Made by a program: the position numbers and the translations under genes. Below are positions 24,622-43,992 of a DNA stretch of 64,000 nucleotides, one piece after another; within the stretch, counting starts at the first letter, position 1, and each line of letters opens with the position of its first letter. The stretch lies in contig NZ_CP043318.1 in assembly GCF_001984825.2 (NCBI RefSeq), forward strand, positions 3,286,001 to 3,350,000, in the 5' to 3' direction. The notes under the pieces are model-generated. The model ran no database searches. It was not told where the DNA came from and worked only from the letters and a program-made list of their open reading frames with translations. The stretch comes from Enterobacter chengduensis (GTDB lineage: Bacteria > Pseudomonadota > Gammaproteobacteria > Enterobacterales > Enterobacteriaceae).

Positions 24622-25602
24622 TCAGGCTTTTGGCTTGTAGTTGCGCAATGCGTTGCGGCCTAGTAGAACAGCAGAACCGACCACAGCACCAAGCAAAACG
24701 GAGAGGATCAAAATAACAGCTTTTTTCGGACTGTCACGACGAACTGGCAGATCCGGTTTCATCACGTAACGGTAGACGTGGACTGTGTCCGGGTTGACGT
24801 TCAGGTTTTGAATATCCAGTAAGTTTTGCCTGGTCTGATAGTATGCAGCGGAAAAGACCAGTGGACGCGTGGCTTCGTTTTCAATCATTGATTTCAGCCC
24901 CTCGCTTCCCAGCAGGAACATCGTCTCCTGCGTCACATCCTGGGTTTGTTGAATCTGCGGGGAGGTGATTTTAGCAGCCTCAGCGTTTTTCAGCGCCTCA
25001 GTAATCTGTTTGATACGCAGATTTTTCTGCTCCTGAGCAACCTTCTCCTGGTTTTGCAGAGAATCGTTCAGGGTCTTGATCTGTTCCTTGATGTTGTCCT
25101 TAAGGTCAACGGCAAGTTCTTTCGCCGTTTGCTCATCAACCTGCTGAATGTATTGCGCCAGCTGTTTTTGTGCAGCTTCGGATGAAGTGCTGGTATAGGA
25201 AACACTTAAAGGTAACGCTTCTCCCTTAACAGCAGGTTCGATGGTCAGTTTTTCAGGTTCTTCCTGGTTTTCAAGTGCCTGCGCTAACGCAGAGAAGGAA
25301 GAATTGAAACGACCAATCGCGCGCGTTTGAATGTCCGTCATGGAAGGAGCAGCACTACCATACAGGATGTTCAATGCATTGGAATAAGTTGCAATTTGAG
25401 CCGCATCAGGTTGCGCGATAATCGCACTTGACGTCCATTTTTCTTTCGCAACAGACAGATATCCTACAGCCAGGGCAATAAAAACAACAACAAAGATTGC
25501 TATCGTCCACTTCCCACGCCACAGTTGCAGCATTAAATCAAGTAAATCAATTTGCTCAGGCTCATTGCTTCGGCTGACCTGGCTATTGTTGTTTTGCGTC
25601 AT
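24622..25602 (-). CDS. wzzB: O-antigen chain length regulator WzzB
   Basis: Inner-membrane polysaccharide co-polymerase that sets the modal length of Wzy-made O antigen. Typical layout: a cytoplasmic N terminus, TM1 at about 32-52, a large periplasmic coiled-coil region (about 150-240, rich in Gln/Lys/Glu), a Pro-rich PDLPVRRDSPKKA, and TM2 at about 293-314. It is 326 residues. It sits at the his side of the O-antigen locus, as in E. coli, and would work with the wzy at 32089-33237. Confidence 0.95.
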   Translation of the reverse strand: MTQNNNSQVSRSNEPEQIDLLDLMLQLWRGKWTIAIFVVVFIALAVGYLSVAKEKWTSSAIIAQPDAAQIATYSNALNILYGSAAPSMTDIQTRAIGRFNSSFSALAQALENQEEPEKLTIEPAVKGEALPLSVSYTSTSSEAAQKQLAQYIQQVDEQTAKELAVDLKDNIKEQIKTLNDSLQNQEKVAQEQKNLRIKQITEALKNAEAAKITSPQIQQTQDVTQETMFLLGSEGLKSMIENEATRPLVFSAAYYQTRQNLLDIQNLNVNPDTVHVYRYVMKPDLPVRRDSPKKAVILILSVLLGAVVGSAVLLGRNALRNYKPKA

Positions 25603-28242: not shown

Positions 28243-29649
28243 TTATTCCATCCATTCGGTATGGAACACGCCTTCTTTATCGGTGCGTTTGTAAGTATGC
28301 GCGCCGAAGTAGTCACGCTGTGCCTGAATCAGGTTGGCAGGCAGAACGGCTGAACGGTAGCTGTCGTAGTAGGCTACTGCAGCAGAGAAGGTCGGAACCG
28401 GAATCCCGTTCTGAACTGCATAGGCCACCACATCACGCAGCGCCTGCTGATATTCGTCCGCAATTTTCTTGAAGTACGGTGCCAGCAGCAGGTTAGCAAT
28501 ACCGGCGTTTTCAGCGTAGGCATCGGTGATTTTCTGCAGGAACTGCGCACGAATGATGCAACCCGCGCGGAAGATCTTGGCGATTTCGCCGTAGTTCAGA
28601 TCCCAGTTGTTCTCGTCTGATGCGGCACGCAGTTGAGAGAAGCCCTGCGCGTAAGAGACGATTTTACCCAGGTACAGGGCACGACGCACTTTCTCAACGA
28701 ATTCAGCTTTATCACCGGCTGGTTTGGCCTGTGGGCCTGACAGCACTTTAGATGCCGCGACGCGCTGCTCTTTCAGAGAAGAGATGTAGCGAGCGAAGAC
28801 GGACTCGGTGATCAGAGACAGCGGCTCGCCCAGATCCAGCGAGCTCTGGCTGGTCCATTTACCGGTACCTTTGTTGGCTGCTTCATCCAGAATCACATCA
28901 ACCAGGTATTTACCCTCTTCATCTTTTTTCGTGAAGATATCTTTGGTGATGTCGATCAGGTAGCTGTTCAGCTCGCCTTTGTTCCACTCGGTGAAGGTTT
29001 CAGCCAGCTCTTCGTTAGAGAGGTTCAGGCCGCCTTTCAGCAGGGAATACGCTTCCGCAATCAGCTGCATGTCGCCATATTCGATACCGTTGTGCACCAT
29101 TTTCACATAGTGACCTGCACCGTCCGCACCGATATAGGTTACGCAAGGCTCGCCATCTTCAGCGACGGCTGCGATTTTGGTCAGGATAGGCGCAACCAGT
29201 TCGTATGCATCTTTCTGGCCGCCAGACATGATAGACGGGCCTTTCAGCGCGCCCTCTTCACCACCGGATACACCGGTACCGATGAAGTTGAAGCCTTCAG
29301 CAGACAGCTCACGGTTACGACGGATGGTGTCCTGGAAGAAGGTATTACCGCCATCAATGATGATGTCACCTTTTTCGAGGTATGGCTTCAGGGAGTCGAT
29401 GGCTGCATCGGTACCTGCGCCCGCTTTCACCATTAACAGGATACGACGAGGTGTTTCCAGAGACTCAACGAACTCTTTAACCGTATAGAAAGGAACCAGT
29501 TTCTTGCCTGGATTTTCGGCAATCACTTCTTCGGTCTTATCACGGGAGCGATTGAAAACGGAGACGGTATAACCACGGCTTTCGATGTTGAGCGCCAGGT
29601 TGCGCCCCATCACTGCCATACCGACAACGCCGATCTGTTGCTTGGACAT
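28243..29649 (-). CDS. gnd: 6-phosphogluconate dehydrogenase, decarboxylating
   Basis: Pentose phosphate pathway enzyme producing ribulose 5-phosphate, CO2 and NADPH. The N-terminal NADP site [17 protein letters not shown] (9-25) and the signature around [19 protein letters not shown], with catalytic Lys and Glu, are present. It is 468 residues. It is the housekeeping border of the O-antigen locus, where recombination exchanging O-antigen clusters is known to occur. A perfect 8-bp hairpin CTGTCGGG/CCCGACAG (29675-29694) lies in the leader 26 bases before the ATG. Confidence 0.97.
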
Positions 29650-29858
29650 TACATACTCCTGTCAGGTGTGGTCACTGTCGGGTAACCCCGACAGATATAA
29701 TTTGCAAGAATCTTAACTCATAAATCGGGGTCAGAGATAGGCATTTGTGGCCTTGATCACCCAAGACGACACAAAACTGGATATATTTTAAACCTTAGGA
29801 AAAGTACAGGTATGATTTATTTATATTTAAACTTAAACATGACAAATAACAAATCGAA

Positions 29859-30244: not shown

Positions 30245-30316
30245 GTTTTTAGAATCAGTTCAATGAGTATATTCTTACTCACTCCCACCAACTCGCAACG
30301 AGACATAGAACTAATA

Positions 30317-31186
30317 TTAATTTCTATTAAATGGACCGAATCTACCTGAAAGACCATCATAGACACCGTAAAATATCATCATCAACGTTTTCTTTTTTTC
30401 TTTGTTAAGAATTAAAGATATTCCTGCGCGAACAAAATTCAAGAAAATCTCGCGAATTTTATATCCCACAGGAATATATGGTTTCCTAATCATAAAGAAA
30501 CTATTCCTTACCAGGAAGTAACGTCGCATGGGACTATGAACAGATATTTTGCGCCCTAACAAATTCAGCCTTGAATCACCGATCGTGTGAGCCATTGATG
30601 CTTTATTAGTCATTGCCACACGATACCCTAATTTTTTGGCACGCAGAGCCCACTCAACATCAATATAATCCACAAAAAGTGCTTCTTCCATCTTGCCAAC
30701 TCTTTTGAAAACTTCGGTAGAAAAGAAGGAGCCAGAAGCAATAACATAAGTTACATCGGTTATCTCTTGTATCGCCGTTCGTTTAATGAAAGGGCCAATA
30801 TAATTAGTGCCCCAATAGAGTTCGTTCGTGTGTGGATCATAAAACGAGGGCCCCAGAATACCAACATTATACTGGGTATATATCTGGCTCATGGCGCTAA
30901 TAAAATTAGCTCCTAGCACACTGTCTTGATCAAGCAGTAATAAATAATCAGCACCGCGTGATATTGCGTTTTCGATACCAATATTTTGTGCATAGGAAAG
31001 TCCACGATTTGTATTCAATTTAATTAAATCGTATTGGAACTGTTGGCACAAACTTTCAATCTCCACTACATTTTTTGAACCATTGTCTACGATTACACAA
31101 TTATCCAGTTGATGATGAAGAGATTGTAACTGTGCCTTAAAACAATCAATGTCTGGATTATAAGTTACAGTGACCGAACTAATCAA
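30317..31186 (-). CDS. GT2 rhamnosyltransferase-like glycosyltransferase (distal)
   Basis: 289-residue GT-A fold enzyme with N-terminal VTVTYNPD, VDNGS (sugar-nucleotide binding) and LLLLDQDS (DXD-type metal motif). The middle YIDVEW...GYR...HTIGD and SPMRRYFLVRN motifs are typical of the RfbF/WbbL rhamnosyltransferase family. It is presumed to add L-rhamnose from dTDP-Rha on undecaprenyl-linked O units at the cytoplasmic face. It starts with TTG, supported by AAGGAG about 8 bases upstream and no nearby ATG. The C-terminal half is highly similar to the next gene, pointing to a tandem duplication. AT-rich. It is the last intact gene of the O-antigen cluster. Confidence 0.85.
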   Translation of the reverse strand: MISSVTVTYNPDIDCFKAQLQSLHHQLDNCVIVDNGSKNVVEIESLCQQFQYDLIKLNTNRGLSYAQNIGIENAISRGADYLLLLDQDSVLGANFISAMSQIYTQYNVGILGPSFYDPHTNELYWGTNYIGPFIKRTAIQEITDVTYVIASGSFFSTEVFKRVGKMEEALFVDYIDVEWALRAKKLGYRVAMTNKASMAHTIGDSRLNLLGRKISVHSPMRRYFLVRNSFFMIRKPYIPVGYKIREIFLNFVRAGISLILNKEKKKTLMMIFYGVYDGLSGRFGPFNRN

Positions 31187-31226: not shown

Positions 31227-32123
31227 TTAACCCGCAGACTTTCCATATATCCCCAGAATCCCATCCTTCCATCCACGTAGGATATATTTAATATACAGTC
31301 TTTTTTTATCCACACAGGCAACAAACATTATCGTGCGAATCGTTGAAAAAATGGCCTCTCTAAATTTATATCCAATAGGAACATATGATAATCGCATCAT
31401 ATAAATTGAGTTTCTTGCAAGATAGTAGCGTCTTAATGGGCTATGTATACTTACTTCTCTTCCCAGAAAAAGCTTTCGCTCATCTCCAATTGTATGACTC
31501 ATTTTGGCATCGGGTATCGCATATAAAGAATATCCATTACTAGCTGTTCTCAAACACCATTCGATATCAATATAATCAATAAATAACTCATCACGCATCA
31601 AACCCACTTTCTTTAATACTTCAACAGGAACTAACATCCCTGAATTTATAAGAAAAGAAACTTTGAGCGGATCAGAGGATTTTGGATAAATGCTTCTAAT
31701 ACGACATCCATCAATTAATGAAAAGGGAGTATTTGTTCCTGTTCTGGGATCATAAAATACAGGTCCAACAGCACCAACCTTATGTCCTTTGGCATTAAGT
31801 TCCATCAAACCTTGTGATAGAGAACTAATAAATTCATCAGTTGGCTCTGAATCCTGATCAAAGAAAAGTACTGCATCTGAATCAGAATCCATAATTTTTT
31901 TAAGTAGAATATTTTGTGCACCAGCCAATCCTAGATTCTCTGACAGAAAAGTATAATCATGGTCAGATAAATACTCATCTTTCAGATGTTGTGCATTATT
32001 GCTGGCGTTGTCAGCCAGATATATTTTTAAATCTAATCGAGATGTTTTTAAAAGTTCAATAAGCTTAGCTAGCACTTCGGTATCTGGGTTATAGGTGACT
32101 ATTAAAGCCGCTATCTTTAACAT
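31227..32123 (-). CDS. GT2 rhamnosyltransferase-like glycosyltransferase (proximal)
   Basis: 298-residue paralogue of the adjacent gene. It shows IVTYNPD, LADNAS and VLFFDQDSEP, then YIDIEWCLR...GYSLY...HTIGDE and SPLRRYYLARNS. It is presumed to be a rhamnosyltransferase of O-unit assembly; the linkage is unknown. ATG at 32123 is preceded by GGAAGA; an alternative in-frame ATG at 32135 would lengthen the overlap with wzy (35 bases with the chosen start). The strong overlap implies translational coupling to wzy. AT-rich like its neighbours. Confidence 0.85.
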   Translation of the reverse strand: MLKIAALIVTYNPDTEVLAKLIELLKTSRLDLKIYLADNASNNAQHLKDEYLSDHDYTFLSENLGLAGAQNILLKKIMDSDSDAVLFFDQDSEPTDEFISSLSQGLMELNAKGHKVGAVGPVFYDPRTGTNTPFSLIDGCRIRSIYPKSSDPLKVSFLINSGMLVPVEVLKKVGLMRDELFIDYIDIEWCLRTASNGYSLYAIPDAKMSHTIGDERKLFLGREVSIHSPLRRYYLARNSIYMMRLSYVPIGYKFREAIFSTIRTIMFVACVDKKRLYIKYILRGWKDGILGIYGKSAG

Positions 32124-33237
32124 TTTTTCTTCCATACGTCATTAAACACCCAATAATAATCAGCAAAATCCAATTTGATAGCCATGTAAAATATTGATCA
32201 TCTATCAATTGCATCAGTATTGCATAAAGTGCTAAGGGATATACGATATAATAAGCCCGAACGTTCTTGTATTTCCATGTATAAATGCGACCTGAAAAGA
32301 AACCAAAAAATGCTGGAAAAACAATTGAAAAATATCCAAAATCCATGAAATAGGGACGTAAATATGTATATATATTTGTAGGAAAAGGTATAAACACCCA
32401 CTCCTGAACTATATTCGCAATTTTAAATGGATAAAGAAAAGTCAACCACAAATAAATATTTCTAAATGAGTAGAAACCGAAATTTTCAGAGGCATTATCA
32501 GGGAGTTGTGAGAATGCCAATATCCCACCAGACATATAATTATAGAGATAATAAAACATTAGACCAGGGGGGGCATCAGGGTATCGTAGACTCATAACCC
32601 CCAAGAAGCACAATATGAACCCGCCTCCAAAAAGAACTACTTTCGATAACTTTAATCGTTTCGGAGTTAAAATAAGTATTGTCGACAAATATAGTAAAAC
32701 AAGTACTTTAGCACCAAGTAACAGTAGCATAGGTAGAGCAAGAACAAAACTTAGTATAAAAAGCTTACGAGAACTAATCAGTAAAAAACATGAAGAGAAA
32801 AGTGATATTAATGCTAATCGTCCCAAAAGGCCGAAATTTGCACCGTCATCAGCAACGAGATATTCGCGGAAAGCTGAAATATTCCACAAAGTGCTAATAG
32901 GAAACTTCAGAAAAAAAACAAGATAAAACAATAACATGAACGCAAAAGGTATTACATTGGGCCAGTGTTCATTTCGTTTTGCCACCATCTTACCCATTAC
33001 TTTTGGTAAAGTTGTTTCCCCACCAATAATTGCAGCCAAGAAAAATGCTAAATTTGCATAGAGAATGAAGTACGTTTTAGGTAAATACTCTTCTTCCGAA
33101 AAAAACAAAGCTAAAGATGAAGAAAATAACCACAATAGAGCATGTACTACAGCTGGATGAATCCACTCGAGTTTGAGATAAAAACAAAGCAATAAACCGC
33201 ATGTATAAACTATTATCAACGCGATTATAACATCCAT
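32089..33237 (-). CDS. wzy: O-antigen polymerase Wzy
   Basis: 382-residue integral membrane protein with about 10-12 hydrophobic segments and little recognisable sequence otherwise. The stretch NIYTYLRPYFMDFGYFSIVFP resembles the N-x-Y-T-x-x-R-x-x-x-x-D-F-G motif of oligosaccharide repeat unit polymerases. A large periplasmic loop lies near residues 215-300. It is the only polymerase candidate in the cluster. Start chosen at ATG 33237, with AGGTGG upstream; an in-frame GTG at 33246 overlaps the end of wzx. WzzB would control the length of its product. Confidence 0.85.
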   Translation of the reverse strand: MDVIIALIIVYTCGLLLCFYLKLEWIHPAVVHALLWLFSSSLALFFSEEEYLPKTYFILYANLAFFLAAIIGGETTLPKVMGKMVAKRNEHWPNVIPFAFMLLFYLVFFLKFPISTLWNISAFREYLVADDGANFGLLGRLALISLFSSCFLLISSRKLFILSFVLALPMLLLLGAKVLVLLYLSTILILTPKRLKLSKVVLFGGGFILCFLGVMSLRYPDAPPGLMFYYLYNYMSGGILAFSQLPDNASENFGFYSFRNIYLWLTFLYPFKIANIVQEWVFIPFPTNIYTYLRPYFMDFGYFSIVFPAFFGFFSGRIYTWKYKNVRAYYIVYPLALYAILMQLIDDQYFTWLSNWILLIIIGCLMTYGRKNVKDSGFNSHL

Positions 33238-33238
33238 T

Positions 33239-34495
33239 TTAGCCACCTGTTTTCATACGAATTCCAAATTTTTCAACATAAAATAAAATTAAAAAATCGG
33301 CAAATGATCTTATCAAAAATGCAACTGCGGCACCAAAGATGGAATAGGTTGTAGTCAGATAATATAGAATCGCGAGGTAAGGGAAAAATTCGATAATATG
33401 CACAACTCCCGTCCATTTTGCATGTCCTGCGGACTGTATTTTTGCAAAGCAGATCTGTGCGACTGAATTAAAGACAAAGCCTAACAATAAAATCTTAAAT
33501 ATTTGTGCCGCATCCCCCATATATTCTTTACCTAACCACAAGCCTAAAATCTCGCTTGAAAACATAAAAAAAGGAGTTGCAAGTAGTATGGAAAACAAAA
33601 ATACCGACCACAAAGTGCGATGATAGACTGTATGAGAATCGTTCGATTGCGAATAGCTTAATTTTGGAAATAACGCTCTGGCAACAGCACCTGGGAATAA
33701 AGATAATCTTGAGACCATATCTGAGGGCCCAGAATAGTGAGCCACAACGCTTGCACCAGAAAAATGAGAAACTGCAAATCGATCGACAAACCCCATGAGT
33801 GGCCCGATTATATTACTTAGGGTAACCCATCCACCGAAGCTCATTAGTTCTGAAAAAACATCCTTCCGAAAAATTCGTCGAAATTCTATAAGGTGGCTTT
33901 CACAAATTTTCCAACTTATAAGTGCAACTATCCATCTTCCAGCAACTAACCCACATACAGCAGAGGTCAAGGTCGGAGAATATAGCACTGCAAAAAGAGG
34001 GAGTAAAATGATAAATGGACTTGTTGTGACTTGTTGAATATTGAGACTTGAGAATTTCTCAACGCCCTCAAGATAGGCTCTCCAGACTTGTGTAAGCAAC
34101 AAAGCTGGCACGCATAATACTAACAAACGAAGCGCTAGCGTCAATTCATTGAGGAGCTCAGGCGAAACATTCAAAAATCTTGCTAACAAAGGAGCAAAAA
34201 AATATCCAAGCAGAACGATAATAATGCTAAGTCCTGTCACAGCATAAAGTGAGGTTCCAAGAATAGCATTAACTCGATTATCATCGTTTCGATGTGTAGA
34301 AACAAATCGTATAACAGCCCTCGACAGTCCACCATCGAAAACACTCGCATAGCCCATTAGGGCATATGCGATTGTAAAAAGACCAAAGCGTTCCACTCCA
34401 AGTGATCTTGCTAAAATCCCCATTACGGGGATAGCCATTAGTAATGGAAGCGCAAGCCCAAATATATTCCAACTACTGTTCTTAATTAAACTCAT
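33239..34495 (-). CDS. wzx: O-antigen flippase Wzx
   Basis: 418-residue polysaccharide transporter (PST/MATE-like MOP superfamily) with about 12 membrane segments. It begins KNSSWNIFGLALPLLMAIPV, typical of Wzx, and holds R/K-bearing inner segments such as LSRAVIRF. It translocates undecaprenyl-PP-linked O units to the periplasm for Wzy. Its ATG overlaps the rmlC stop by four bases. Very AT-rich, marking the start of the low-GC serotype-specific part. Confidence 0.9.
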   Translation of the reverse strand: MSLIKNSSWNIFGLALPLLMAIPVMGILARSLGVERFGLFTIAYALMGYASVFDGGLSRAVIRFVSTHRNDDNRVNAILGTSLYAVTGLSIIIVLLGYFFAPLLARFLNVSPELLNELTLALRLLVLCVPALLLTQVWRAYLEGVEKFSSLNIQQVTTSPFIILLPLFAVLYSPTLTSAVCGLVAGRWIVALISWKICESHLIEFRRIFRKDVFSELMSFGGWVTLSNIIGPLMGFVDRFAVSHFSGASVVAHYSGPSDMVSRLSLFPGAVARALFPKLSYSQSNDSHTVYHRTLWSVFLFSILLATPFFMFSSEILGLWLGKEYMGDAAQIFKILLLGFVFNSVAQICFAKIQSAGHAKWTGVVHIIEFFPYLAILYYLTTTYSIFGAAVAFLIRSFADFLILFYVEKFGIRMKTGG

Positions 34496-35046
34496 ATAAT
34501 TTTACTTTTAATCAAAAAACTCATCATTGGAGCATTTTTATCCTTACTAGATAAAATAATATTGTCTTCTTTAGGCCAATCTATACCAATGTCTTCATCA
34601 TTCCAGAGAATCGAACCTTCAGCTTCTGGATGATAGTAATCTGTTGTTTTGTATAAGAATTCAGTATTATCTTCTAATGTAAGAAAACCATGGGCGAATC
34701 CCTCAGGAATCCACAATTGACGTTTATTTTCGGCAGATAGAATAACACCAACCCATTTGCCAAAAGTTGAAGATTGCTTGCGGATATCAACTGCTACATC
34801 AAATACTGCACCAGCGACACAGCGGACCAACTTCCCCTGAGCATAGGGATCTTTCTGATAATGCAATCCACGAAGTACGCCTTTTGCGGATTTTGAATGG
34901 TTATCTTGAACAAAATCTATTTGTTGGCCAACAGCATCTTCAAATGTTTTTTGATTGAAACTTTCCATGAAAAAACCACGTTCATCCCCAAATACTTTTG
35001 GCTCAAAGATTAATACTTCTGGGATTTCTGTTTTAATAATATTCAT
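34492..35046 (-). CDS. rfbC: dTDP-4-dehydrorhamnose 3,5-epimerase
   Basis: RmlC, third enzyme of dTDP-L-rhamnose synthesis, double epimerisation of the 4-keto sugar. Cupin fold, 184 residues, with the catalytic histidine H62 in GVLRGLHYQ, the substrate segment LVRCVAGAVFDVAVDIR, and IPEGFAHGF. It is transcribed after rfbA with a three-base gap and overlaps wzx by four bases. Confidence 0.96.
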   Translation of the reverse strand: MNIIKTEIPEVLIFEPKVFGDERGFFMESFNQKTFEDAVGQQIDFVQDNHSKSAKGVLRGLHYQKDPYAQGKLVRCVAGAVFDVAVDIRKQSSTFGKWVGVILSAENKRQLWIPEGFAHGFLTLEDNTEFLYKTTDYYHPEAEGSILWNDEDIGIDWPKEDNIILSSKDKNAPMMSFLIKSKII

Positions 35047-35049
35047 CAG

Positions 35050-35928
35050 TTAATAACCTTTGATCATTTTCAACAAATATTGTCCATATTGGTTTTTTGA
35101 TAAAGGCGCGGCAAGTTTTTTAACCTGCTCAGCATCAATAAACCCTTTGCGATAGGCAATTTCTTCAGGGCAAGCAACTTTAAGTCCCTGACGCTCTTCA
35201 ATGGTTGCAATGAAATTACTCGCTTCAATTAGACTCTGGTGAGTCCCTGTATCAAGCCAGGCAAAACCACGCCCCATCATAGCTACGGAAAGTTGTCCCT
35301 GCTCCATGTAAATGCGGTTGATATCCGTGATTTCTAGCTCACCACGTGCTGAAGGTTTCAAATTTTTTGCCATTTCAACGACACTGTTGTCATAGAAATA
35401 CAGCCCTGTCACCGCATAATTACTCTTCGGCTCCAGCGGTTTTTCTTCGAGGCTGATGGCTGTTCCATTTTTATCAAACTCGACAACACCGTAACGCTCA
35501 GGATCGTTCACGTGATAGGCAAAGACCGTTGCACCATTTTCTTTATTAACCGCGGCATCCATTAATTTAGGAAGGTCGTGACCATAGAAAATGTTATCGC
35601 CCAACACCAGGGCACAATCATCGTTACCAATGAATTCTTTGCCAATAACGAAAGCCTGCGCCAGGCCATCCGGGCTTGGCTGGACTTTGTATTGCAGATT
35701 TAGCCCCCACTGGCTTCCATCACCCAGAAGTTGTTCAAAACGCGGTGTATCCTGCGGAGTACTAATAATTAAAATATCTCGAATACCAGCCAGCATCAGC
35801 GTTGAAAGCGGATAGTAAATCATCGGCTTATCATAAATAGGCAATAACTGTTTACTAACAGCCATGGTCACTGGATACAGACGAGTACCAGAGCCACCCG
35901 CCAGAATAATACCTTTACGCGTTTTCAT
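35050..35928 (-). CDS. rfbA: Glucose-1-phosphate thymidylyltransferase
   Basis: RmlA, first step: dTTP + Glc-1-P to dTDP-glucose. Nucleotidyltransferase motif [11 protein letters not shown] (11-21), catalytic [17 protein letters not shown], and LGDNIFYG with the metal aspartate are present. It is 292 residues, long like RmlA of E. coli. Order rfbB-rfbD-rfbA-rfbC is the usual one. Confidence 0.96.
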
Positions 35929-35980: not shown

Positions 35981-36880
35981 TTAAATCGCAGTCGCTGTGA
36001 ACCACTCAGTCAGCATACGCTTAACCCCAGTCTCCCACTGTGGCAGTACAAGGTCGAAATTCTCCTGAAACTTTGAAGTATTCAGACGGGAGTTTGCCGG
36101 GCGTTTAGCAGGCGTAGGGTACGCGCTGGTCGCAACCCCATGAAGCTGGTTTAATGCCAATTCAATCCCTGCTGCACGCGCCTCTTCGAATACCAGAGAG
36201 GCATAGTCGAACCAGGTTGTCGTACCACTGGCAACCAGATGATAAGTTCCTGCTACCTCAGGTTTATTCATAGCAACCCGAATTGCATGAGCCGTGCAGT
36301 CCGCTAATAATTCGGCTCCTGTGGGTGCACCAAATTGGTCGTTAATCACAGACAACTCAGAACGCTCTTTTGCCAGTCGTAACATAGTACGCGCAAAGTT
36401 ATTCCCTTTGCCGGCATAAACCCAGCTAGTACGGAAGATCAAATGGCGTGAGCAATTTTCGCTTAATGCTTTTTCACCCGCTAGTTTGGTCTCACCATAA
36501 ACATTGAGCGGCGCAGTAGCGTCAGTTTCCAGCCAAGGTGTAGTTCCATTACCCGGAAATACGTAATCAGTAGAGTAATGAATAACCCAAGCACCTAATT
36601 TCTGTGCCTCTTTGGCAATCCCCTCGACACTTGTGGCATTCAGAAGCTGAGCGAATTCAGGTTCTGACTCAGCCTTATCAACGGCGGTGTGCGCAGCTGC
36701 GTTAACGATCACATCTGGCTTAATACGACGCACAGTTTCTGCAACACCCTCAGGATTACTGAAATCGCCGCAATACTCTTGAGAATTGACGTCAACAGCA
36801 ATCAAATTACCCAGAGGTGCAAGAGCACGTTGAAGTTCCCAACCCACCTGACCGGTTTTACCGAACAGAAGAATATTCAT
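35981..36880 (-). CDS. rfbD: dTDP-4-dehydrorhamnose reductase
   Basis: RmlD, last step, forming dTDP-L-rhamnose with NAD(P)H. SDR with GKTGQVG (7-13), [10 protein letters not shown] and catalytic Y128-x3-K132 (YGETK). It is 299 residues. Its ATG overlaps the rfbB stop by one base. Confidence 0.96.
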
Positions 36881-37965
36881 CAGGTACGATCTCCATAATT
36901 TTCTTCAATCCAGGACTTGTAGCTACCGCTTTTTACGTTCTCTACCCATTGTGTGTTCGCCAGGTACCATTCTACGGTTTTGCGAATGCCGCTTTCGAAG
37001 GTTTCCTGGGGCTTCCAGCCAAGTTCCCTACCAATTTTCTCTGCATCAATCGCGTAGCGGCGATCGTGGCCCGGACGGTCGGCAACATACGTTATCTGGT
37101 CACGATAGGAGCCTTCTTTCGGCACAATCTCATCCAGCAGGAAGCAGATGGTGTTTACTACATCAAGATTTTGTTTTTCATTGTGGCCGCCGATGTTATA
37201 GGTTTCCCCAATCTTACCCTTCGTCACCACGGTATATAATGCACGGGCGTGATCTTCAACATATAGCCAGTCGCGAATCTGGTCTCCTTTACCGTAAACC
37301 GGCAAGGCTTTACCATCCAACGCATTGAGAATGACCAGTGGGATAAGTTTTTCAGGGAAGTGGTAAGGACCGTAGTTGTTTGAACAGTTAGTCACTATGG
37401 TCGGGAAGCCGTAAGTGCGAAGCCAGGCACGGACCAAATGGTCGCTTGACGCTTTAGACGCAGAATATGGGCTGCTTGGGGCATAAGCGGTAGTTTCAGT
37501 AAAGAGAGGCAGTTTAGAGCCCTCTTCAATCTCATCCGGGTGCGGAAGATCGCCATACACTTCATCTGTGGAGATATGGTGGAAACGGAATGACGCTTTT
37601 TTATCAGCACTTAACTCAGACCAGTACTTGCGGCTCGCTTCCAACAGCACATAGGTGCCAAGAATGTTAGTCTCTATAAAAGCTGCCGGGCCGGTAATCG
37701 AGCGATCAACGTGGCTCTCAGCGGCCAGATGCATCACAGCATCCGGCTGGTGCTCTGCAAAAATACGCGCCATGGCGTCGCTGTCGCAGATATCGGCATG
37801 TTCAAAACGATAGCGATCGCTGTGTGAGACATCAGCCAGCGATTCAAGATTACCTGCATAAGTCAGCTTATCGACGTTGATAACAGAATCTTGTGTATCA
37901 TTAATAATGTGTCGTACCACTGCAGACCCAATAAAGCCTGCTCCACCAGTGACCAGAATTTTCAC
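36880..37965 (-). CDS. rfbB: dTDP-glucose 4,6-dehydratase
   Basis: RmlB, second step of dTDP-rhamnose synthesis. Extended SDR with NAD motif GGAGFIG (7-13), active-site T133-D134-E135 (ISTDEVYG) and Y167-x3-K171 (YSASK). Start assigned to the GTG at 37965: this gives 361 residues and the conserved MKILVTGG N terminus, as in E. coli rfbB. An upstream in-frame start at 38001 would add 12 non-conserved residues. Confidence 0.95.
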
Positions 37966-38067
37966 GTTTATTTCGCTCTTAATGTTTTCAGAAACAATCA
38001 ATTACATTCCATCGCCCCGGTAGCTATCGGCAAGCATTCAGGGCGGAGGAAAGCACAATCTGCTATC

Positions 38068-39987
38068 TTAACTTATCTTTTCATTCCAAAGTAAATCGCA
38101 GATAACATCGGTTGGATTGAACGCTGCAGGTGCTTGCAACAGGATCTCACGTACGCGTTCGTAGTCGAAATCGCGGCAGGCCTTGTCGAGGTCGTGGAGA
38201 ATAATGCTCATCTCATTCCACGGCAACATCACTTCGTTAGCAGTCTTTATTCGCGGGTGCTGCGTGACAGACACATTGTCGCCGATAAGTAACTCTTCAT
38301 AAAGTTTCTCACCTGGACGTAGGCCCGTCGTTTTTATCTCAATATCACCGTACGGATTTTTATCATCACGAACGGTGAGCCCTTGAAGGGTAATCATGCG
38401 ATGCGCAAGCTCTATAATCTTGACGGGTTCACCCATATCCAGAACAAAGACATCGCCGCCCGTCCCCATAGCTCCCGCCTGGATTACCAACTGCGCCGCT
38501 TCAGGAATCGTCATAAAGTAGCGCGTAATATTCTCATGGGTCAGCGTCACGGGACCACCCGCAGCTATTTGTTTTTCAAACAGTGGCACGACAGAACCCG
38601 ACGAGCCTAGTACATTGCCGAAGCGAACCATGCTAAAGCAAGTTTTACTGGATTCTTTCGCTAGCGCCTGAAGCACTAACTCAGCCATTCGTTTGGTCGC
38701 CCCCATTGTATTGGTCGGCCGCACGGCTTTATCAGTCGAAATTAAGACAAAGTTTTCTACACCGCAGCGCGCTGCAGCCTGTGCACAGCTCAGCGTACCA
38801 AAGATATTATTGCGAACTCCGTCAAGAACGTTGAATTCGACAAGCGGTACATGCTTGTAGGCCGCAGCGTGATAAATCGTATTAACGTTAAATGCGTCGA
38901 TTAATCTTTCGAGATGCTCTTTATCCTGAACATTACCGAGAATAGGATAAATTTTAACCTGAAGATTCTGGCTCAGATTCAGATTACGCAGCTCCGAGTC
39001 GATGGAATAAAGTGAGAACTCGGACAATTCGAAAAGAATAAGCTGGTTCGGTTTATTTTTAATTATCTGTCGACAAAGCTCCGAACCAATCGATCCCCCT
39101 GCCCCGGTAACCATGACCGTTTTCCCGTTAATATTACGAGACACCAATTCCGGAATTGGTGAAACGGGATCGCGGCCCAGCAGATCGGTAATAACCACTT
39201 TGCGCAATGCATCAATACGCGCTTTCCCCTCCACCAGATCGACCATGCCGGGAATGGAGAGTACCTCGCACGGCAAACCTTCCAGTGTTTTAATGACTTC
39301 GTTCTTCCTGGCTCGACTGGCGCTTGGCATGGCAAGCAGAATCTTTTTCGCTTCGTATTTCTCAACTAACCATGGCAGTTTTTCCGGGGCGAAAACGCTG
39401 ACACCATGAATGACCTGACCTTGCAGAGCACGGTTGTCATCGACGAAAGCTACTGGATAGTATTCATCCATCTGGCTCAGCGCAGGTAGTAATTGACGGC
39501 CCGATGCCCCAGCACCATAAATTACCACCCGAGTGCCCAGGTTTAACCCACGATTTACCAGCATTCTCATCCCAAGTCGTGATCCGGCAATGAGCAGTAA
39601 TCCGAAGGAGAAATAAATAAATGGAATCGTTCTTGGCAGAAAGAGATTGGTATAAAATGCTGCAACAATAAGCAAAATGGATGATATAACCATCCCTACT
39701 GTAACAACCAATAATATTTTTGCAGTTATATAGCGAATAACGGCTCGATAAAGTCCTAACTTTACAAATATCGCCAAAGTTACGATGATTATCGAAAATA
39801 TAAATAACCAATATTTCGCACTATATATCGGCGTCATTGAATCAATGCGTACCCAAAATGCAAACCAAAATGCGCATAAAAGAAGTACAACATCTATCGA
39901 AAGTGTAATAATCCGTTTTATTGGTCTGGGCAAAGATATTAAATAATTTAGCATACTTAAAACTGGTCGCCTCGTTAAAGCTTGCAT
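38068..39987 (-). CDS. WbpM/FlaA1-family membrane 4,6-dehydratase
   Basis: 639-residue nucleotide-sugar dehydratase of the WbpM/CapD/PglF type. Four hydrophobic segments lie at about 25-45, 58-80, 90-112 and 118-138. A CoA-binding-like Rossmann domain follows (VIYGAGASG, 155-163), then a C-terminal SDR domain (VTGAGGSIG, 293-301). In the active site the usual Tyr is replaced by Met: S417-T-D, M428-x3-K432 (TMGATK), the hallmark of WbpM-like enzymes that make UDP-4-keto-6-deoxy-GlcNAc from UDP-GlcNAc. It is presumed to supply the keto intermediate for a QuiNAc or FucNAc initiating sugar with the nearby reductase. A second candidate start is at 39954 (MLNYLISLP); neither has a strong ribosome site. 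Confidence 0.9.
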   Translation of the reverse strand: MQALTRRPVLSMLNYLISLPRPIKRIITLSIDVVLLLCAFWFAFWVRIDSMTPIYSAKYWLFIFSIIIVTLAIFVKLGLYRAVIRYITAKILLVVTVGMVISSILLIVAAFYTNLFLPRTIPFIYFSFGLLLIAGSRLGMRMLVNRGLNLGTRVVIYGAGASGRQLLPALSQMDEYYPVAFVDDNRALQGQVIHGVSVFAPEKLPWLVEKYEAKKILLAMPSASRARKNEVIKTLEGLPCEVLSIPGMVDLVEGKARIDALRKVVITDLLGRDPVSPIPELVSRNINGKTVMVTGAGGSIGSELCRQIIKNKPNQLILFELSEFSLYSIDSELRNLNLSQNLQVKIYPILGNVQDKEHLERLIDAFNVNTIYHAAAYKHVPLVEFNVLDGVRNNIFGTLSCAQAAARCGVENFVLISTDKAVRPTNTMGATKRMAELVLQALAKESSKTCFSMVRFGNVLGSSGSVVPLFEKQIAAGGPVTLTHENITRYFMTIPEAAQLVIQAGAMGTGGDVFVLDMGEPVKIIELAHRMITLQGLTVRDDKNPYGDIEIKTTGLRPGEKLYEELLIGDNVSVTQHPRIKTANEVMLPWNEMSIILHDLDKACRDFDYERVREILLQAPAAFNPTDVICDLLWNEKIS

Positions 39988-39992
39988 TCAGT

Positions 39993-40553
39993 TTATAAAA
40001 TAGTACCAGCAGGACACACTGAGTAATCGTCTACTTTTGTATTATACCCACCGACAGTACCCGCCTGTAGAAACGCTGACTTACCAATGACAGCACCTCC
40101 AGCAAGATGGACACCTACCCCTAAGTGGGAAAAATCATCCAGAATAGAATCATGATCTACTGTCGAATGACTATTTACAATCGTACCCGCCCCTAATTTC
40201 GAATTGGCACCAACCACTGCGCCTGCTAATACAACCGCGCCATCTGAAATCGTTGCCGATGGACTGACAAATGCAAAGGGGTGTATAAGCGTTACGGGGG
40301 AAATACCTAAGCTAATAAGCTGCCGAAAGAGTTGTTCTCTGATTGTATTATTCCCAATTCCGATAGCTATGTGATTGGCATTTTTGATGTGTAATTTTAG
40401 TTCGGAAATTTTCCCGATGATAAGTTTGTTAGTATCAACGATTGGTGATCTATTATCGTCAAGGAAAACGATATCCTCATACCCCAGAAGTCCCGCCATC
40501 TCGTACAGGGTTCTTCCATGCCCACCTGCACCTAAAATCATTAGGTCATGCAT
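39993..40553 (-). CDS. NeuD/PglD-like left-handed beta-helix acetyltransferase
   Basis: 186-residue protein. The N-terminal Rossmann-like nucleotide-sugar binding part has GAGGHGRTLYE (8-18) and FLDD. The C-terminal hexapeptide-repeat beta-helix (about 95-186) contains the likely catalytic H134 in TVDHDS, as in PglD/NeuD proteins. These transfer acetyl groups to amino or hydroxyl groups of nucleotide sugars. No aminotransferase is present in the cluster, so O-acetylation of an O-unit sugar or precursor is as likely as N-acetylation. It overlaps the initiating transferase gene by eight bases and is followed by the dehydratase after five bases. Confidence 0.82.
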   Translation of the reverse strand: MHDLMILGAGGHGRTLYEMAGLLGYEDIVFLDDNRSPIVDTNKLIIGKISELKLHIKNANHIAIGIGNNTIREQLFRQLISLGISPVTLIHPFAFVSPSATISDGAVVLAGAVVGANSKLGAGTIVNSHSTVDHDSILDDFSHLGVGVHLAGGAVIGKSAFLQAGTVGGYNTKVDDYSVCPAGTIL

Positions 40554-41589
40554 TGACGTTGCTCTCTTTGTCTTTTACGCCTGCACCGCATTTGAGTGCT
40601 ACTGCGAAAAGCGGGAGCCAGGCAATAATCAACCCAACAACGCCATCAATTTTGGCTGAGGCGATAAGGTAGGCGATCGGGAAAAGCCACAGCAGGTTGA
40701 CGGCGATCGCCATCATTGTCACCGGAACATGACTGCCATATTTTCTAGCGAGAATTTGATAGCCATGACTGGCATGCGCTTCATAGACCTTTTTACCCGC
40801 CACGAGCCTTCTTAGCAACGTTGTCGTTGCATCGACGATAAATACGCCTAGCAAACATAATTCCGCGATAAAGAAATGGGTGTCTACTTTCGCAATATGG
40901 AGGATCATCAGCCCAATGGTTATCCCCAGGAAACCACTCCCGGCATCGCCCATGAAGATTTTCGCTACTGGAAAATTCCAGACAATAAAGCCTGCCGCGC
41001 CACCGATAAGGGCCAACGTCAGCGGATAAATACTTCCAGGGAGGTCCGTGTACTGGCTTACAACAATCAATATCGCACTGCATGCGGCAAACGTGATTGC
41101 TTCTGCGCTGGCCAGGCCATTAATCCCGTCCATGAAATTATATAAGTTCAGCATCCAGACCAGATACACACAGCCCAGAATCATACCAATCCAGGATAAG
41201 GATAGATCGTAACCAAAAAGCGTAATTACAGGGAAGGAACCCAAGAAATAAATACCAATTGCAGCAGCAAGGAAATGCATCAACAGGCGCCAGCGAGCCG
41301 CAATATGACCATGATCGTCAAGGAAACCGATGATTGCAACAATCACGCCTGGAATAAATAGGCCCAGGAAGTTCTCCAACGTAAACGTTTGGTTAAAATA
41401 AAAGTATACTAAAGCAACGAGTACCGTCAGGACGATCGCTACGCCACCACCACGAGGCGTTGGCACAGAATGCGAACTTCGCTGGTTTGGACGATCAATA
41501 ACGTTATGCTTAATAGCATAACCTCGCAATCCCCAAGTCAGTGCGCATGACACTAAAAAAGCGAATATCACAATCCCCAAATTCATCAT
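40546..41589 (-). CDS. WbpL/WecA-family initiating glycosyl-1-phosphate transferase
   Basis: 347-residue polytopic membrane protein of the MraY/WecA PNPT superfamily, with about 10-11 membrane segments. Signatures: RSSHSVPTPRGGG (38-50), the metal-binding D91-D92 in GFLDD, NLYNFMDGINGLA (148-160), FMGDAGSGFLG (D215) and cytoplasmic HASHGYQ (272-278). It transfers a HexNAc-1-phosphate to undecaprenyl phosphate. Clustering with WbpM-type and WbpK/V-type genes suggests the sugar is UDP-QuiNAc or UDP-FucNAc, as for Pseudomonas WbpL. It is not WecA itself, whose gene lies in the enterobacterial common antigen cluster. Its ATG overlaps the upstream gene stop by one base. Confidence 0.9.
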   Translation of the reverse strand: MMNLGIVIFAFLVSCALTWGLRGYAIKHNVIDRPNQRSSHSVPTPRGGGVAIVLTVLVALVYFYFNQTFTLENFLGLFIPGVIVAIIGFLDDHGHIAARWRLLMHFLAAAIGIYFLGSFPVITLFGYDLSLSWIGMILGCVYLVWMLNLYNFMDGINGLASAEAITFAACSAILIVVSQYTDLPGSIYPLTLALIGGAAGFIVWNFPVAKIFMGDAGSGFLGITIGLMILHIAKVDTHFFIAELCLLGVFIVDATTTLLRRLVAGKKVYEAHASHGYQILARKYGSHVPVTMMAIAVNLLWLFPIAYLIASAKIDGVVGLIIAWLPLFAVALKCGAGVKDKESNVNA

Positions 41590-42533
41590 TATTTGCTACC
41601 TTCGATATAATAGTTCGCCGTTTTTCTCATCGTTTCATAAAGCGTTATTGGAGGAGTCCAGTTTAAATGCTCCCGAGATTTGGTGGCATCAACTTCCAGA
41701 TCGCCAAATAACTGATCGTAAATTCCGCCTTTACCTGCAGCGGAAAGCAATATTTTCAGGATTACCTTAGGGAAATAGATAACTTTCGCTTTAATGTTCA
41801 TGCCTGAAGCAAAGGCATTAATCATATCTTCAGTTGAAGGTCGTTCTGCATCTGCGAGCAGATAGAGCTGATTTTTTGATTTTTCATTAATTACGCACTC
41901 ACTGATAAAGCTGACGACATTATCTAGCGAGACAAGTGCCCGCTTATTCTTCACGTTTTTAAATGGTAACGGTAGGTTTTTCGACACCAGTTTCAAAAGA
42001 CGCTGTATATTACCTGGAGCATTTTTACCGCAAATTAATGCAGGACGAACAATGGTGATCGCCATGTTGCTGCCAGAGAAATTTTTAAGCAGACTTTGCT
42101 CGGCTTCAAGCTTAGAAATGGCATAATCAGAAGTTGGCTGGGGTTTTGACGCTTCAGAAAAAGGGATCCCCGAGGTAGCGTTACCGTTGACACCAATCGA
42201 GCTGACGAAAATAAAATGCTTCACCCCGCTGGTCGCGGCATCTGCCGCTAATTTCATGGTCGCGTCGTGATTAACCCGACGAAATTCCGCCAAAGCATCC
42301 TGTGCATCATCATTAAGAATATGCGCCCTCCCCGCAGTATGAATGACAGTCTCGCATCCCTCAAGGAGGTTAACCCAGTTGGTATCGGCGGAGATATCTC
42401 CCAGGTTGTAAATTCCCTGTTCAGGGTTCCCCTGTTTGCGCGTTGTTAATATCACCTCATGTCCTGATGATTTCAACGTCCGGACTAAAGCAGTACCAAG
42501 AAACCCGGTGCCACCCGTCACCAATACTTTCAT
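41589..42533 (-). CDS. NAD-dependent epimerase/reductase, WbpK/WbpV-like
   Basis: 314-residue extended SDR with GGTGFLG (7-13), SSIGVNG and a catalytic YAISK. It resembles Pseudomonas WbpK/WbpV and rhizobial WreQ-type enzymes, which reduce C4 of UDP-4-keto-6-deoxy-GlcNAc to UDP-FucNAc or UDP-QuiNAc. Which epimer is made cannot be told by reading. It is the first gene after the JUMPstart element. Start at ATG 42533 with GGGG about 6 bases upstream; a second ATG at 42539 is too close to that site. Confidence 0.82.
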   Translation of the reverse strand: MKVLVTGGTGFLGTALVRTLKSSGHEVILTTRKQGNPEQGIYNLGDISADTNWVNLLEGCETVIHTAGRAHILNDDAQDALAEFRRVNHDATMKLAADAATSGVKHFIFVSSIGVNGNATSGIPFSEASKPQPTSDYAISKLEAEQSLLKNFSGSNMAITIVRPALICGKNAPGNIQRLLKLVSKNLPLPFKNVKNKRALVSLDNVVSFISECVINEKSKNQLYLLADAERPSTEDMINAFASGMNIKAKVIYFPKVILKILLSAAGKGGIYDQLFGDLEVDATKSREHLNWTPPITLYETMRKTANYYIEGSK

Positions 42534-42645: not shown

Positions 42646-42684
42646 CACGCTACCGCCCCTGGCTTAACAGCTACCAGTGCACTG
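42646..42684 (-). promoter_or_regulatory. JUMPstart element with ops site
   Basis: On the minus strand, CAGTGCACTGGTAGCTG... ends in the ops core GGCGGTAGCGTG (42646-42657). This 39-base element precedes polysaccharide operons in enterobacteria and recruits RfaH to paused RNA polymerase for long-operon antitermination. It lies about 110 bases before the first O-antigen gene. A candidate promoter upstream (TTGTAA, 17 bases, TATGGT, about 42750-42790) is weak evidence only. Confidence 0.93.
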
Positions 42685-42919: not shown

Positions 42920-43816
42920 TCAGTCGTTTGCCAGCAACTTCTCAATACGGGTTCTGAACTTCGCCCCTTCCTTCAGGTTACGCAGACCATAGTTCACAAA
43001 CGCCTGCATATACCCCATTTTCTTACCGCAGTCATAGCTGTCGCCGGTCATCAGCATCGCGTCAACAGACTGTTTTTTCGCCAGTTCGGCAATCGCGTCG
43101 GTCAGCTGAATACGGTCCCAGGCGCCTGGTTCGGTTTTTTCCAGTTCCGCCCAGATATCGGCGTTCAGAACATAGCGGCCCACCGCCATCAGATCTGAGT
43201 CCAGCGTCTGCGGCTGATCCGGTTTTTCGATAAACTCAACGATGCGGCTCACCTGCCCTTCCGTCTCCAGCGCTTCTTTCGTCTGAATCACGGAGTACTC
43301 GGAGAGATCGCCCTTCATGCGTTTCGCCAGCACCTGGCTGCGACCCGTTTCGTTGAAACGCGCCACCATGGCCGCCAGGTTGTAACGCAGCGGATCGGCA
43401 GATGCGGTATCGATGATGATGTCCGGCAGCACGACGATGAATGGATTATCCCCGACAACAGGGCGGGCACACAGGATAGAGTGTCCCAGACCCAGCGGCT
43501 GCGCCTGACGCACGTTCATGATGGTTACGCCCGGCGGACAGATGGACTGCACTTCCGCCAGCAGCTGGCGTTTGACGCGCTGCTCAAGCAACGCTTCGAG
43601 TTCGTAAGAGGTGTCGAAGTGGTTCTCAACCGCATTCTTGGACGAATGCGTAACCAGGACGATTTCTTTGATCCCTGCAGCAACAATCTCGTCGACAATG
43701 TATTGAATCATTGGCTTGTCAACGATCGGCAGCATCTCTTTAGGAATGGCTTTTGTGGCTGGCAGCATATGCATGCCCAAGCCTGCTACCGGAATGACTG
43801 CTTTCAAATTAATCAT
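42920..43816 (-). CDS. galF: GalU-like regulatory subunit GalF
   Basis: 298-residue homologue of GalU (UTP-glucose-1-phosphate uridylyltransferase). E. coli GalF is weakly active and thought to modulate GalU and the UDP-glucose level. The N-terminal motif reads [24 protein letters not shown]: GalU has GLGTRMLP, whereas His-Met here matches GalF. Start at ATG 43816 with GGAAG six bases upstream; an in-frame GTG at 43828 is less likely. It marks the boundary between colanic acid and O-antigen loci. Confidence 0.94.
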
Positions 43817-43992
43817 TATTTCTTCCACCTTAAAATGGTTGACGAATTATAGCTCTTAAACCTGTTTTCGCCAGCATGATTTGCCGTAATTCATGGGTAA
43901 TGTTACGCCCTGACACTACAAATTTCCGTAGTTGTAATCTGATAAGATCACGTTTTTATACCAGGAATAGTCTCAAAATTGACAAGTGGCGA

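What the first reader, a model, noticed from the sequence alone, without database searches (positions are those of the whole stretch)
38068..42533. WecA-independent O-antigen initiation module (WbpK/V-like, WbpL-like, WbpM-like) at the head of an enterobacterial rhamnan-type locus
Seen: a reductase/epimerase, a PNPT-family initiating transferase with all metal motifs, and a WbpM-type dehydratase lie together directly after JUMPstart, ahead of rmlBDAC. Known: in Pseudomonas this trio makes and loads UDP-FucNAc or UDP-QuiNAc, whereas most Enterobacterales begin O units with WecA and GlcNAc/GalNAc. Inference: this O antigen starts with a 6-deoxy-HexNAc and carries rhamnose added by the two GT2 enzymes, suggesting a trisaccharide-like backbone.
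Basis: partly seen in the sequence, partly recalled or inferred. Interest (0 to 1): 0.7.

Follow-up and report, generated by a model that had tools for sequence, protein, structure and literature searches.

The report
Four-gene starter cassette for O-antigen sugars
This stretch of an Enterobacter-like genome makes an unusual deoxy-amino sugar and probably loads it as the first sugar of the cell-surface O antigen; the cassette type is already known from relatives, but it holds a conserved fourth enzyme whose job is unexplained and sits in front of a rhamnose gene set that in E. coli O19 lacks it.

Summary
Starting an enterobacterial O unit this way is already in print: E. cloacae O9-O12, O16 and O27 carry wbpL/wbpM/wbpK (PMC7198725), and an E. 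coli O45 genome carries the same four genes (70-87% identical). The likely first sugar is D-FucNAc, with QuiNAc as rival. The genes after the cassette (rmlBDAC, wzx, wzy, two rhamnosyltransferases) are collinear with E. coli O19, which lacks the cassette. So this is a known starter cassette before an O19-type rear, not a rhamnan locus; none of 24 E. cloacae serotype primer pairs matches it. A third glycosyltransferase gene has decayed beside gnd. Open questions: what the acetyltransferase does (kept in 12 of 16 cassette loci examined, catalytic residues invariant, dN/dS 0.10-0.14, 9 of those 12 without an aminotransferase in the locus), and how O19-type enzymes cope with a different first sugar. 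Sugar identity, WecA independence and acetylation remain inferences.

The parts
42920..43828 (-). galF, left flank of the O locus
   Evidence: 90.5% to E. coli O19 GalF; 98-99% in L050-L052
42647..42657 (-). ops core of JUMPstart (GGCGGTAGCGT)
   Evidence: exact match; 40-bp 95% match to the E. coli O19 galF-rmlB spacer
41589..42533 (-). SDR 4-ketoreductase, WbpK/WbpV type by context (ORF caller also offers start 42539)
   Evidence: PF01370 1.9e-29; 75% to the E. coli O45 SDR; 88-90% to proteins named E. cloacae, E. asburiae, E. chengduensis and E. bugandensis, 84% to Citrobacter
40546..41589 (-). WbpL-type polyprenyl-phosphate sugar-1-phosphate transferase (initiating)
   Evidence: PF00953 6.3e-31; TIGR02380 WecA model 84.5 bits against a cut-off of 326; 74% to E. 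coli O45
39993..40553 (-).
   Evidence: PF17836 + PF00132; best PDB match 4m98 'pilin glycosylation protein' 7.8e-33; N127, H134, D135, H143 invariant in 12 of 12 aligned
38068..39987 (-). WbpM-type membrane UDP-GlcNAc 4,6-dehydratase (non-inverting)
   Evidence: PF02719 1e-125 + PF13727; WlaL 5bju 4.9e-85; 87% to E. coli O45
36880..38001 (-). rmlB (true start probably inside the TTG ORF)
   Evidence: TIGR01181 above cut-off
35981..36880 (-). rmlD
   Evidence: NF007440 above cut-off
35050..35928 (-). rmlA
   Evidence: TIGR01207 above cut-off
34492..35046 (-). rmlC
   Evidence: TIGR01221 above cut-off
33239..34495 (-). wzx flippase
   Evidence: PF01943; 71% to E. coli O19 Wzx
32089..33246 (-). 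wzy polymerase
   Evidence: TIGR04370 101.6 bits over cut-off 40; 60% to E. coli O19 Wzy; 74-87% in proteins named from Enterobacter
31227..32135 (-). GT2 rhamnosyltransferase 1
   Evidence: TIGR01556 247.6 over 200.55; 60% to E. coli O19
30317..31186 (-). GT2 rhamnosyltransferase 2
   Evidence: TIGR01556 257.5 over 200.55; 61% to E. coli O19; 82% to L050
29650..30316 (-). no listed ORF; decayed remnant of a GT4 glycosyltransferase gene that is intact in L050
   Evidence: tblastn pieces 3e-14 and 5e-13; DNA alignment broken by about 720 missing bases
28243..29649 (-). gnd, right flank
   Evidence: TIGR00873 above cut-off
24622..25602 (-). wzzB chain-length regulator
   Evidence: NF012015 above cut-off

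Best explanation
[quoted passage not shown] The SDR reduces the ketone, most likely to UDP-D-FucNAc. The PNPT transfers the sugar-1-phosphate to undecaprenyl phosphate. Two GT2 enzymes add L-rhamnose from the rml pathway. Wzx flips the trisaccharide, Wzy polymerises it and WzzB sets its length. The PglD-like enzyme probably acetylates this same first sugar, by inference at the 4-hydroxyl. Shown by sequence: the genes, their families and order, recurrence of the four genes as a unit, purifying selection on three of them (SDR, PNPT, PglD), and collinearity of the rest with E. coli O19. Inferred: FucNAc rather than QuiNAc, loading by this PNPT rather than WecA, the trisaccharide unit, and the role of the acetyltransferase.
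For: Families. The four-gene order follows galF directly in L014, L015, L019, L050-L052 and follows rmlB in E. coli O45, L013, L053, L054 (galF itself is outside the listed part of L054). PMC7198725 (sections 7, 11, 14 read) deduces D-FucNAc as first sugar for E. cloacae O9-O12, O16, O27 and cites a FucNAc-containing O10 structure; by that paper's primers L051/L052 type as O27 and L053/L054 as O16. The PNPT is far under the WecA cut-off. In 5 of the 9 cassette genomes the second PNPT match is listed and lies 4.4-6.4 kb from a strong PF01041 match, the layout of the ECA cluster (recalled), so WecA coexists. PglD.
Against: No chemistry exists for this strain. P. aeruginosa WbpK and WbpV sequences were not obtained, so product stereochemistry rests on relatives and on the authors' naming; PMC4514872 (passages) warns that homology does not settle reductase specificity. 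The SDR reaches no NCBIfam cut-off, and PMC3682973 (one passage) places WbpV in a clade of mostly unknown function beside 4-epimerases. The O45 structure paper (Jann 1995) was seen only as a reference-list title. The PglD family normally N-acetylates amino sugars, so the acetylation step is the weakest. A cited title says P. [quoted passage not shown]
Confidence: 0.7

Rival explanations
1. Same pathway, but the SDR is a WbpV-type reductase and the first sugar is D-QuiNAc.
For: In Acinetobacter, Qnr and ItrB relate to P. aeruginosa O6 WbpV and WbpL, which serve QuiNAc (PMC3628348 passages); P. aeruginosa O1, O9 and O13 O antigens are listed with QuiNAc and O5 with FucNAc (PMC4815439 passage); the window SDR is 44% to Pseudomonas and Acinetobacter proteins of unknown product.
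Against: The closest described relatives (E. cloacae wbpK-bearing serotypes and the O16/E. coli O45 type) are assigned D-FucNAc by PMC7198725; the window SDR is 75% identical to that of O45.
Confidence: 0.2
2. WecA still starts this O unit with GlcNAc and the cassette sugar is internal or unused.
For: A WecA-level PNPT coexists with the cassette in relatives; the collinear E. coli O19 locus has no initiator of its own.
Against: Only two glycosyltransferases remain and both are rhamnosyltransferase-type, leaving none to add FucNAc; PNPT dN/dS of 0.04-0.07 in 6 pairs shows selection.
Confidence: 0.08
3. The PglD-like enzyme N-acetylates a 4-amino sugar made with an aminotransferase encoded elsewhere, so a 2,4-diacetamido sugar is involved.
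For: PglD-family homology with intact catalytic residues; all 14 genomes searched do hold PF01041 aminotransferases somewhere.
Against: A reductase occupies the aminotransferase step; in 9 of 12 PglD-bearing loci no aminotransferase lies in the locus, and in the other 3 (L015, L051, L052) it stands beside rml genes and is read as FdtB-type (the FdtB reading is inference).
Confidence: 0.08
4. The PglD-like gene is a passenger with no current role.
For: 4 of 16 cassette loci lack it (L017, L018, L020, L021); its dN/dS is higher than that of SDR and PNPT.
Against: Full length in 12 of 12 sequences with invariant catalytic residues and dN/dS 0.10-0.14 in the 7 of 11 pairs with finite dS.
Confidence: 0.2
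5. The SDR is a 4-epimerase (Gnu-like, acting on the lipid-linked or nucleotide sugar) rather than a 4-ketoreductase.
For: A Pseudomonas relative (P0124) bears the source name N-acetylglucosaminyl-diphospho-undecaprenol 4-epimerase, and WbpV groups beside 4-epimerases (PMC3682973 passage).
Against: A WbpM-type dehydratase product needs a reductase or aminotransferase next, and no other candidate lies in the locus.
Confidence: 0.06

Closest known systems
E. coli O45 / E. cloacae O16 O-antigen locus
   Same: SDR-PNPT-PglD-WbpM in the same order (SDR 75, PNPT 74, PglD 70, WbpM 87% identical; one O45:H2 record examined)
   Different: O45 has rmlB ahead of the cassette and other genes downstream; its wzx, wzy and GT gave no match to the window's at E 1e-3
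E. cloacae O27-type (L051, L052) and O12-like (L050) loci
   Same: Share galF-cassette-rmlBDA with the window at 87-88% DNA over 8.8-9.3 kb
   Different: Different wzx/wzy; the O27-type loci have a PF01041 aminotransferase; L050 keeps an intact GT4 and is only O12-like (5+4 primer mismatches)
E. coli O19 O-antigen locus (L035, L036; also E. whittamii L037)
   Same: rmlBDAC-wzx-wzy-GT2-GT2 collinear, 60-94% identical to L035
   Different: No initiation cassette; L035 and L036 carry an extra GT4 before gnd; L037 ends before that point
P. aeruginosa WbpK/WbpV-WbpL-WbpM
   Same: Same enzyme families and proposed pathway (as cited in PMC7198725)
   Different: Location after an enterobacterial JUMPstart; extra PglD-like gene; direct sequence comparison not made
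Acinetobacter qnr-itrB-gdr modules
   Same: Reductase, WbpL-like initiator and dehydratase together (PMC3628348 passages)
   Different: Capsule loci; QuiNAc assigned

Membership tests
WbpL-type PNPT initiating transferase | Glycos_transf_4 domain over its cut-off, not WecA | tested here: met
   PF00953 108 bits over 27; TIGR02380 84.5 under 326
WbpL-type PNPT initiating transferase | Transfers 6-deoxy-HexNAc-1-P to Und-P | not testable with these tools
   Needs biochemistry
WbpM-type non-inverting 4,6-dehydratase | PF13727 + PF02719 long form, nearer WlaL/PglF than PseB/FnlA | tested here: met
   5bju 289 bits against 120 for 2gn4; TIGR03589 179 under 407.75, TIGR04130 150 under 730
WbpK/WbpV 4-ketoreductase | Sequence closeness to characterised WbpK or WbpV | not tested
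   Reference sequences not obtained; only relatives and annotations
PglD/NeuD acetyltransferase | PglD_N + hexapeptide with the conserved His | tested here: met
   (catalytic role of the His recalled)
PglD/NeuD acetyltransferase | NCBIfam TIGR03570 cut-off | tested here: not met
   143.7 bits under 160.8
PglD N-acetyltransferase pathway (bacillosamine-like) | Partner aminotransferase in the locus | tested here: not met
   None among the window's galF-gnd genes; none in 7 PF01041-tested loci nor in O45 by annotation; one present in L015, L051, L052
E. coli O45-type cassette | Four genes in the same order | tested here: met
E. coli O19 serogroup locus | Whole gene content alike | tested here: not met
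   8 genes collinear, but cassette added and GT4 only a remnant of another GT4
Rhamnan locus (ABC-transporter type) | wzm/wzt | tested here: not met
   wzx/wzy present; the 12 galF-gnd genes are all assigned and none is an ABC transporter
Reference E. cloacae serotypes | wzy/wzt primer match | tested here: not met
   0 of 24 pairs at 6 or fewer mismatches per primer and size within 30 bp

The most novel reading that the evidence does not exclude
A four-enzyme starter cassette makes a 4-O-acetylated 6-deoxy-HexNAc nucleotide sugar in the cytoplasm with a PglD-family enzyme turned O-acetyltransferase, loads it as the first O-unit sugar, and stands in front of a WecA-type (E. coli O19) rhamnose rear, so that flippase, polymerase and first rhamnosyltransferase had to accept a new first sugar.
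Probability: 0.3. Interest if true: 0.55.

Novelty: new member of a known kind. Interest (0 to 1): 0.33.

Why it matters
It offers a natural pair (this locus against E. coli O19) in which related glycosyltransferases, Wzx and Wzy (60-71% identical) probably face two different starting sugars, so tolerance for the first sugar can be compared directly. It also flags an acetyltransferase that recurs in this cassette, in E. coli O45 too (annotated there as hypothetical protein), and that is not among the pathway enzymes named in the Figure 2 legend of the E. cloacae survey (the figures and supplements themselves were not seen). For serotyping, the locus falls outside the 24 published E. cloacae primer sets.

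Tried and rejected
The rhamnan idea was rejected on gene content. A close E. coli counterpart of the cassette was excluded: megablast of the whole block found nothing in E. coli; the sensitive search with 3940 of its 4472 bases found 31 of 5426 genomes, all in the 60-80% band (20 rows listed, 71.4% each). A second natural example of cassette gain was sought with the O45 wzx-wzy stretch: 30 of 5426 genomes matched, all at 99% or more, so no diverged relative that might lack the cassette turned up. WbpK and WbpV references were sought through a Pseudomonas query; only an untyped P. aeruginosa homologue (P0220) appeared among the 120 listed, so FucNAc against QuiNAc stayed open. Wzy relatives: the genome-collection scan gave only E. 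whittamii; 3 of 392 family genomes matched, one strongly; 0 of 61 genus genomes at 1e-40 (which carries no positive control of its own). The GT4 of E. coli O19 L035 or L036 gives no convincing match in the gap beside gnd, but that of L050 does, as a remnant. By their titles, the starts of abstracts shown and the passages opened, none describes a PglD-like gene in this cassette or this hybrid locus; but PMC7198725 says that acetyl transferases were assigned in individual strains, and its figures and supplement were not available, so the gene may be drawn there. The E. coli O19 and O45 structures were not found in text. No structure prediction was run.
Full report
WHAT IS THERE. Between galF (42920-43828) and gnd (28243-29649), all on the minus strand, lie twelve genes: SDR, PNPT, PglD-like, WbpM-type, rmlB, rmlD, rmlA, rmlC, wzx, wzy, GT2, GT2. 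The ops core of JUMPstart is exact at 42647-42657. The SDR and PNPT frames overlap by one base, the PNPT and PglD frames by eight, and five bases separate PglD from wbpM, as expected for coupled translation (inference). G+C is 43-47% in the cassette, 54% in galF and 34-39% from wzx to the GTs.

FAMILIES. The PNPT matches Glycos_transf_4 at 6.3e-31 but reaches only 84.5 bits on the WecA model, whose cut-off is 326. The large dehydratase has CoA_binding_3 plus Polysacc_synt_2; its nearest solved relative is WlaL (5bju, 4.9e-85; C. jejuni PglF by recall), and it is far under the cut-offs of PseB and FnlA, which points to the D series (inference). The small protein is PglD_N plus hexapeptide; its best solved relatives are a pilin-glycosylation acetyltransferase (4m98), the UDP-N-acetylbacillosamine N-acetyltransferase and a perosamine N-acetyltransferase; it falls under the TIGR03570 cut-off (143.7 against 160.8). 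The SDR is over Pfam's Epimerase cut-off but reaches no NCBIfam cut-off. Both GT2 proteins exceed the TIGR01556 rhamnosyltransferase cut-off.

HOW COMMON. Among 392 genomes of the GTDB family, 9 hold a PNPT at E 1.3e-108 or better; the next listed is 4e-22 at 27% identity. In the window's genus (61 genomes held) 5 have it at E 1e-60. That the window belongs to that genus rests on 92-93% DNA identity to three of its members in the 2.5 kb next to galF (a draw with no other genus of the same family) and on 98-99% GalF identity to L050-L052 against 90-92% in L013-L015. The closest named protein relatives are Enterobacter. In E. coli the block occurs in 31 of 5426 genomes (30 over at least 80% of the query) at 60-80% DNA identity; the one record examined is O45:H2.

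FOUR GENES, NOT THREE. I count 16 loci with a strong PNPT: the window, E. coli O45 (L022), nine from the family draw (L013-L021) and five from the genus (L050-L054). In 12 of 16 the PglD-like gene sits between PNPT and wbpM; L017, L018, L020 and L021 lack it, and L021 shows no ORF whose best match is the SDR either. In the 12 sequences N127, H134, D135 and H143 are invariant, and H134 aligns with the His of the HE/HD motif of PglD and the perosamine enzyme (that this His is catalytic is recalled). Against the window, dN/dS is 0.10-0.14 for PglD (7 of 11 pairs had finite dS), 0.07-0.09 for the SDR (8 of 11) and 0.04-0.07 for the PNPT (6 of 11); wbpM was not computed. A PF01041 aminotransferase lies in the fetched stretch of 3 of the 12 (L015, L051, L052), beside rml genes and read as FdtB-type (inference); it is absent from the stretches L013, L014, L016, L019, L050, L053 and L054, from O45 by annotation and from the window by its gene list. 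All 14 genomes do hold such enzymes elsewhere, so supply from afar is not excluded. A reductase plus an acetyltransferase without a local aminotransferase fits O-acetylation of the reduced sugar better than N-acetylation. This is inference; NeuD as an O-acetyltransferase of the same family is a recalled precedent.

ALREADY KNOWN. PMC7198725 (sections 7, 11 and 14 read in full, other passages seen) reports wbpL, wbpM and wbpK homologues in 6 of 26 E. cloacae serotypes (O9-O12, O16, O27), deduces D-FucNAc as first sugar, cites a FucNAc-containing structure for O10, and notes O16 to be close to E. coli O45. With its primers, L051 and L052 type as O27 (0+3 and 0+2 mismatches, exact size), L054, L053 and E. 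coli O45 as O16 (1+2, 2+4, 2+3), and L050 is O12-like (5+4, exact size); the window matches none of 24 pairs. One near-hit of 6+6 mismatches, 20 bp off size, in L014 shows the noise level.

MODULAR HISTORY. The eight genes after the cassette are collinear with E. coli O19: rmlB 87, rmlD 85, rmlA 94, rmlC 76, wzx 71, wzy 60, GTs 60 and 61%. Two of the four E. coli records that cover most of the wzx-GT stretch were opened (L035, L036); both lack the cassette and any initiator gene in the locus. E. whittamii L037 has galF-rmlBDAC-wzx-wzy-GT-GT without the cassette, up to the end of its contig. From galF to rmlA or into rmlC the window instead follows members of its genus (87-88% DNA over 8.8-9.3 kb against L050-L052), while wzx, wzy and the first GT find their match in O19. 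So a shared front block (galF, cassette, rmlBDA) is joined to serotype-specific rears, here an O19-type rear; the last GT2 is nearer to L050 (82%) than to O19 (61%). The direction of exchange was not tested. The same joint may exist in E. cloacae: an SDR (P0003) and a Wzy (P0240) named from that species both list a longest contig of 120,733 bases, which suggests but does not prove one contig.

A LOST TRANSFERASE. The 667-bp gap before gnd holds no listed ORF (at least 140 aa) but matches the intact GT4 gene of L050 in protein pieces (best 3e-14 and 5e-13) and two DNA pieces between which about 720 bases of L050 are missing. E. coli O19 records L035 and L036 also have a GT4 there, though of other sequence. 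The window's unit is therefore probably one sugar shorter than the L050 type: initiator plus two rhamnoses, three sugars (inference).

WECA. The own assembly is not held, so wecA could not be looked for. All 9 cassette genomes have two PNPT matches; for G377, G320, G066, G390 and G193 the second is listed and lies 4.4-6.4 kb from a strong PF01041 match, the layout of the ECA cluster (recalled). The cassette thus adds to WecA rather than replacing it in these relatives; that this O antigen is WecA-independent is likely but not shown.

WHAT STANDS AGAINST THE READING. PMC4514872 (passages) shows QuiNAc reductases of unrelated sequence and warns against inferring specificity from homology; PMC3682973 (one passage) puts WbpV in a little-known clade beside 4-epimerases; a Pseudomonas relative of the SDR is named as a 4-epimerase by its source (P0124); 4 of 16 cassette loci do without PglD. 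These leave the sugar and the acetylation open.

VERDICT. Real, correctly placed, functionally mostly right, but a new member of a published kind rather than a surprise. The open and testable points are the acetyltransferase and the O19-type rear.

Noticed in passing
L016, L017, L018 (unnamed family genomes G066, G390, G193): The SDR-PNPT-WbpM set (with PglD in L016 only) is not between galF and gnd. In L016 it lies between a MASE1-GGDEF-EAL gene (yegE-like) and an alkA-like gene, near udk-, dcd- and asmA-like genes; L017 and L018 have ORFs of like size and order, not scanned. An initiation module outside the O locus.
   Followed up: partly
window 29650-30316: Decayed remnant of a GT4 glycosyltransferase gene between the last GT2 and gnd; an intact relative exists in L050 3921-5033.
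   Followed up: yes
L035 and L036 (E. coli O19-type records): The third glycosyltransferase before gnd differs strongly between the two records (32% identical), and an ISAs1 transposase sits beside it in L035: possible serotype variation within O19.
   Followed up: no
L022 20262-20798: E. coli O45 has a second acetyltransferase (serine O-acetyltransferase family) besides the PglD-like gene, which RefSeq calls hypothetical.
   Followed up: no
E. coli collection: One of the 31 cassette matches lies on a plasmid; that record was not among the 20 listed.
   Followed up: no
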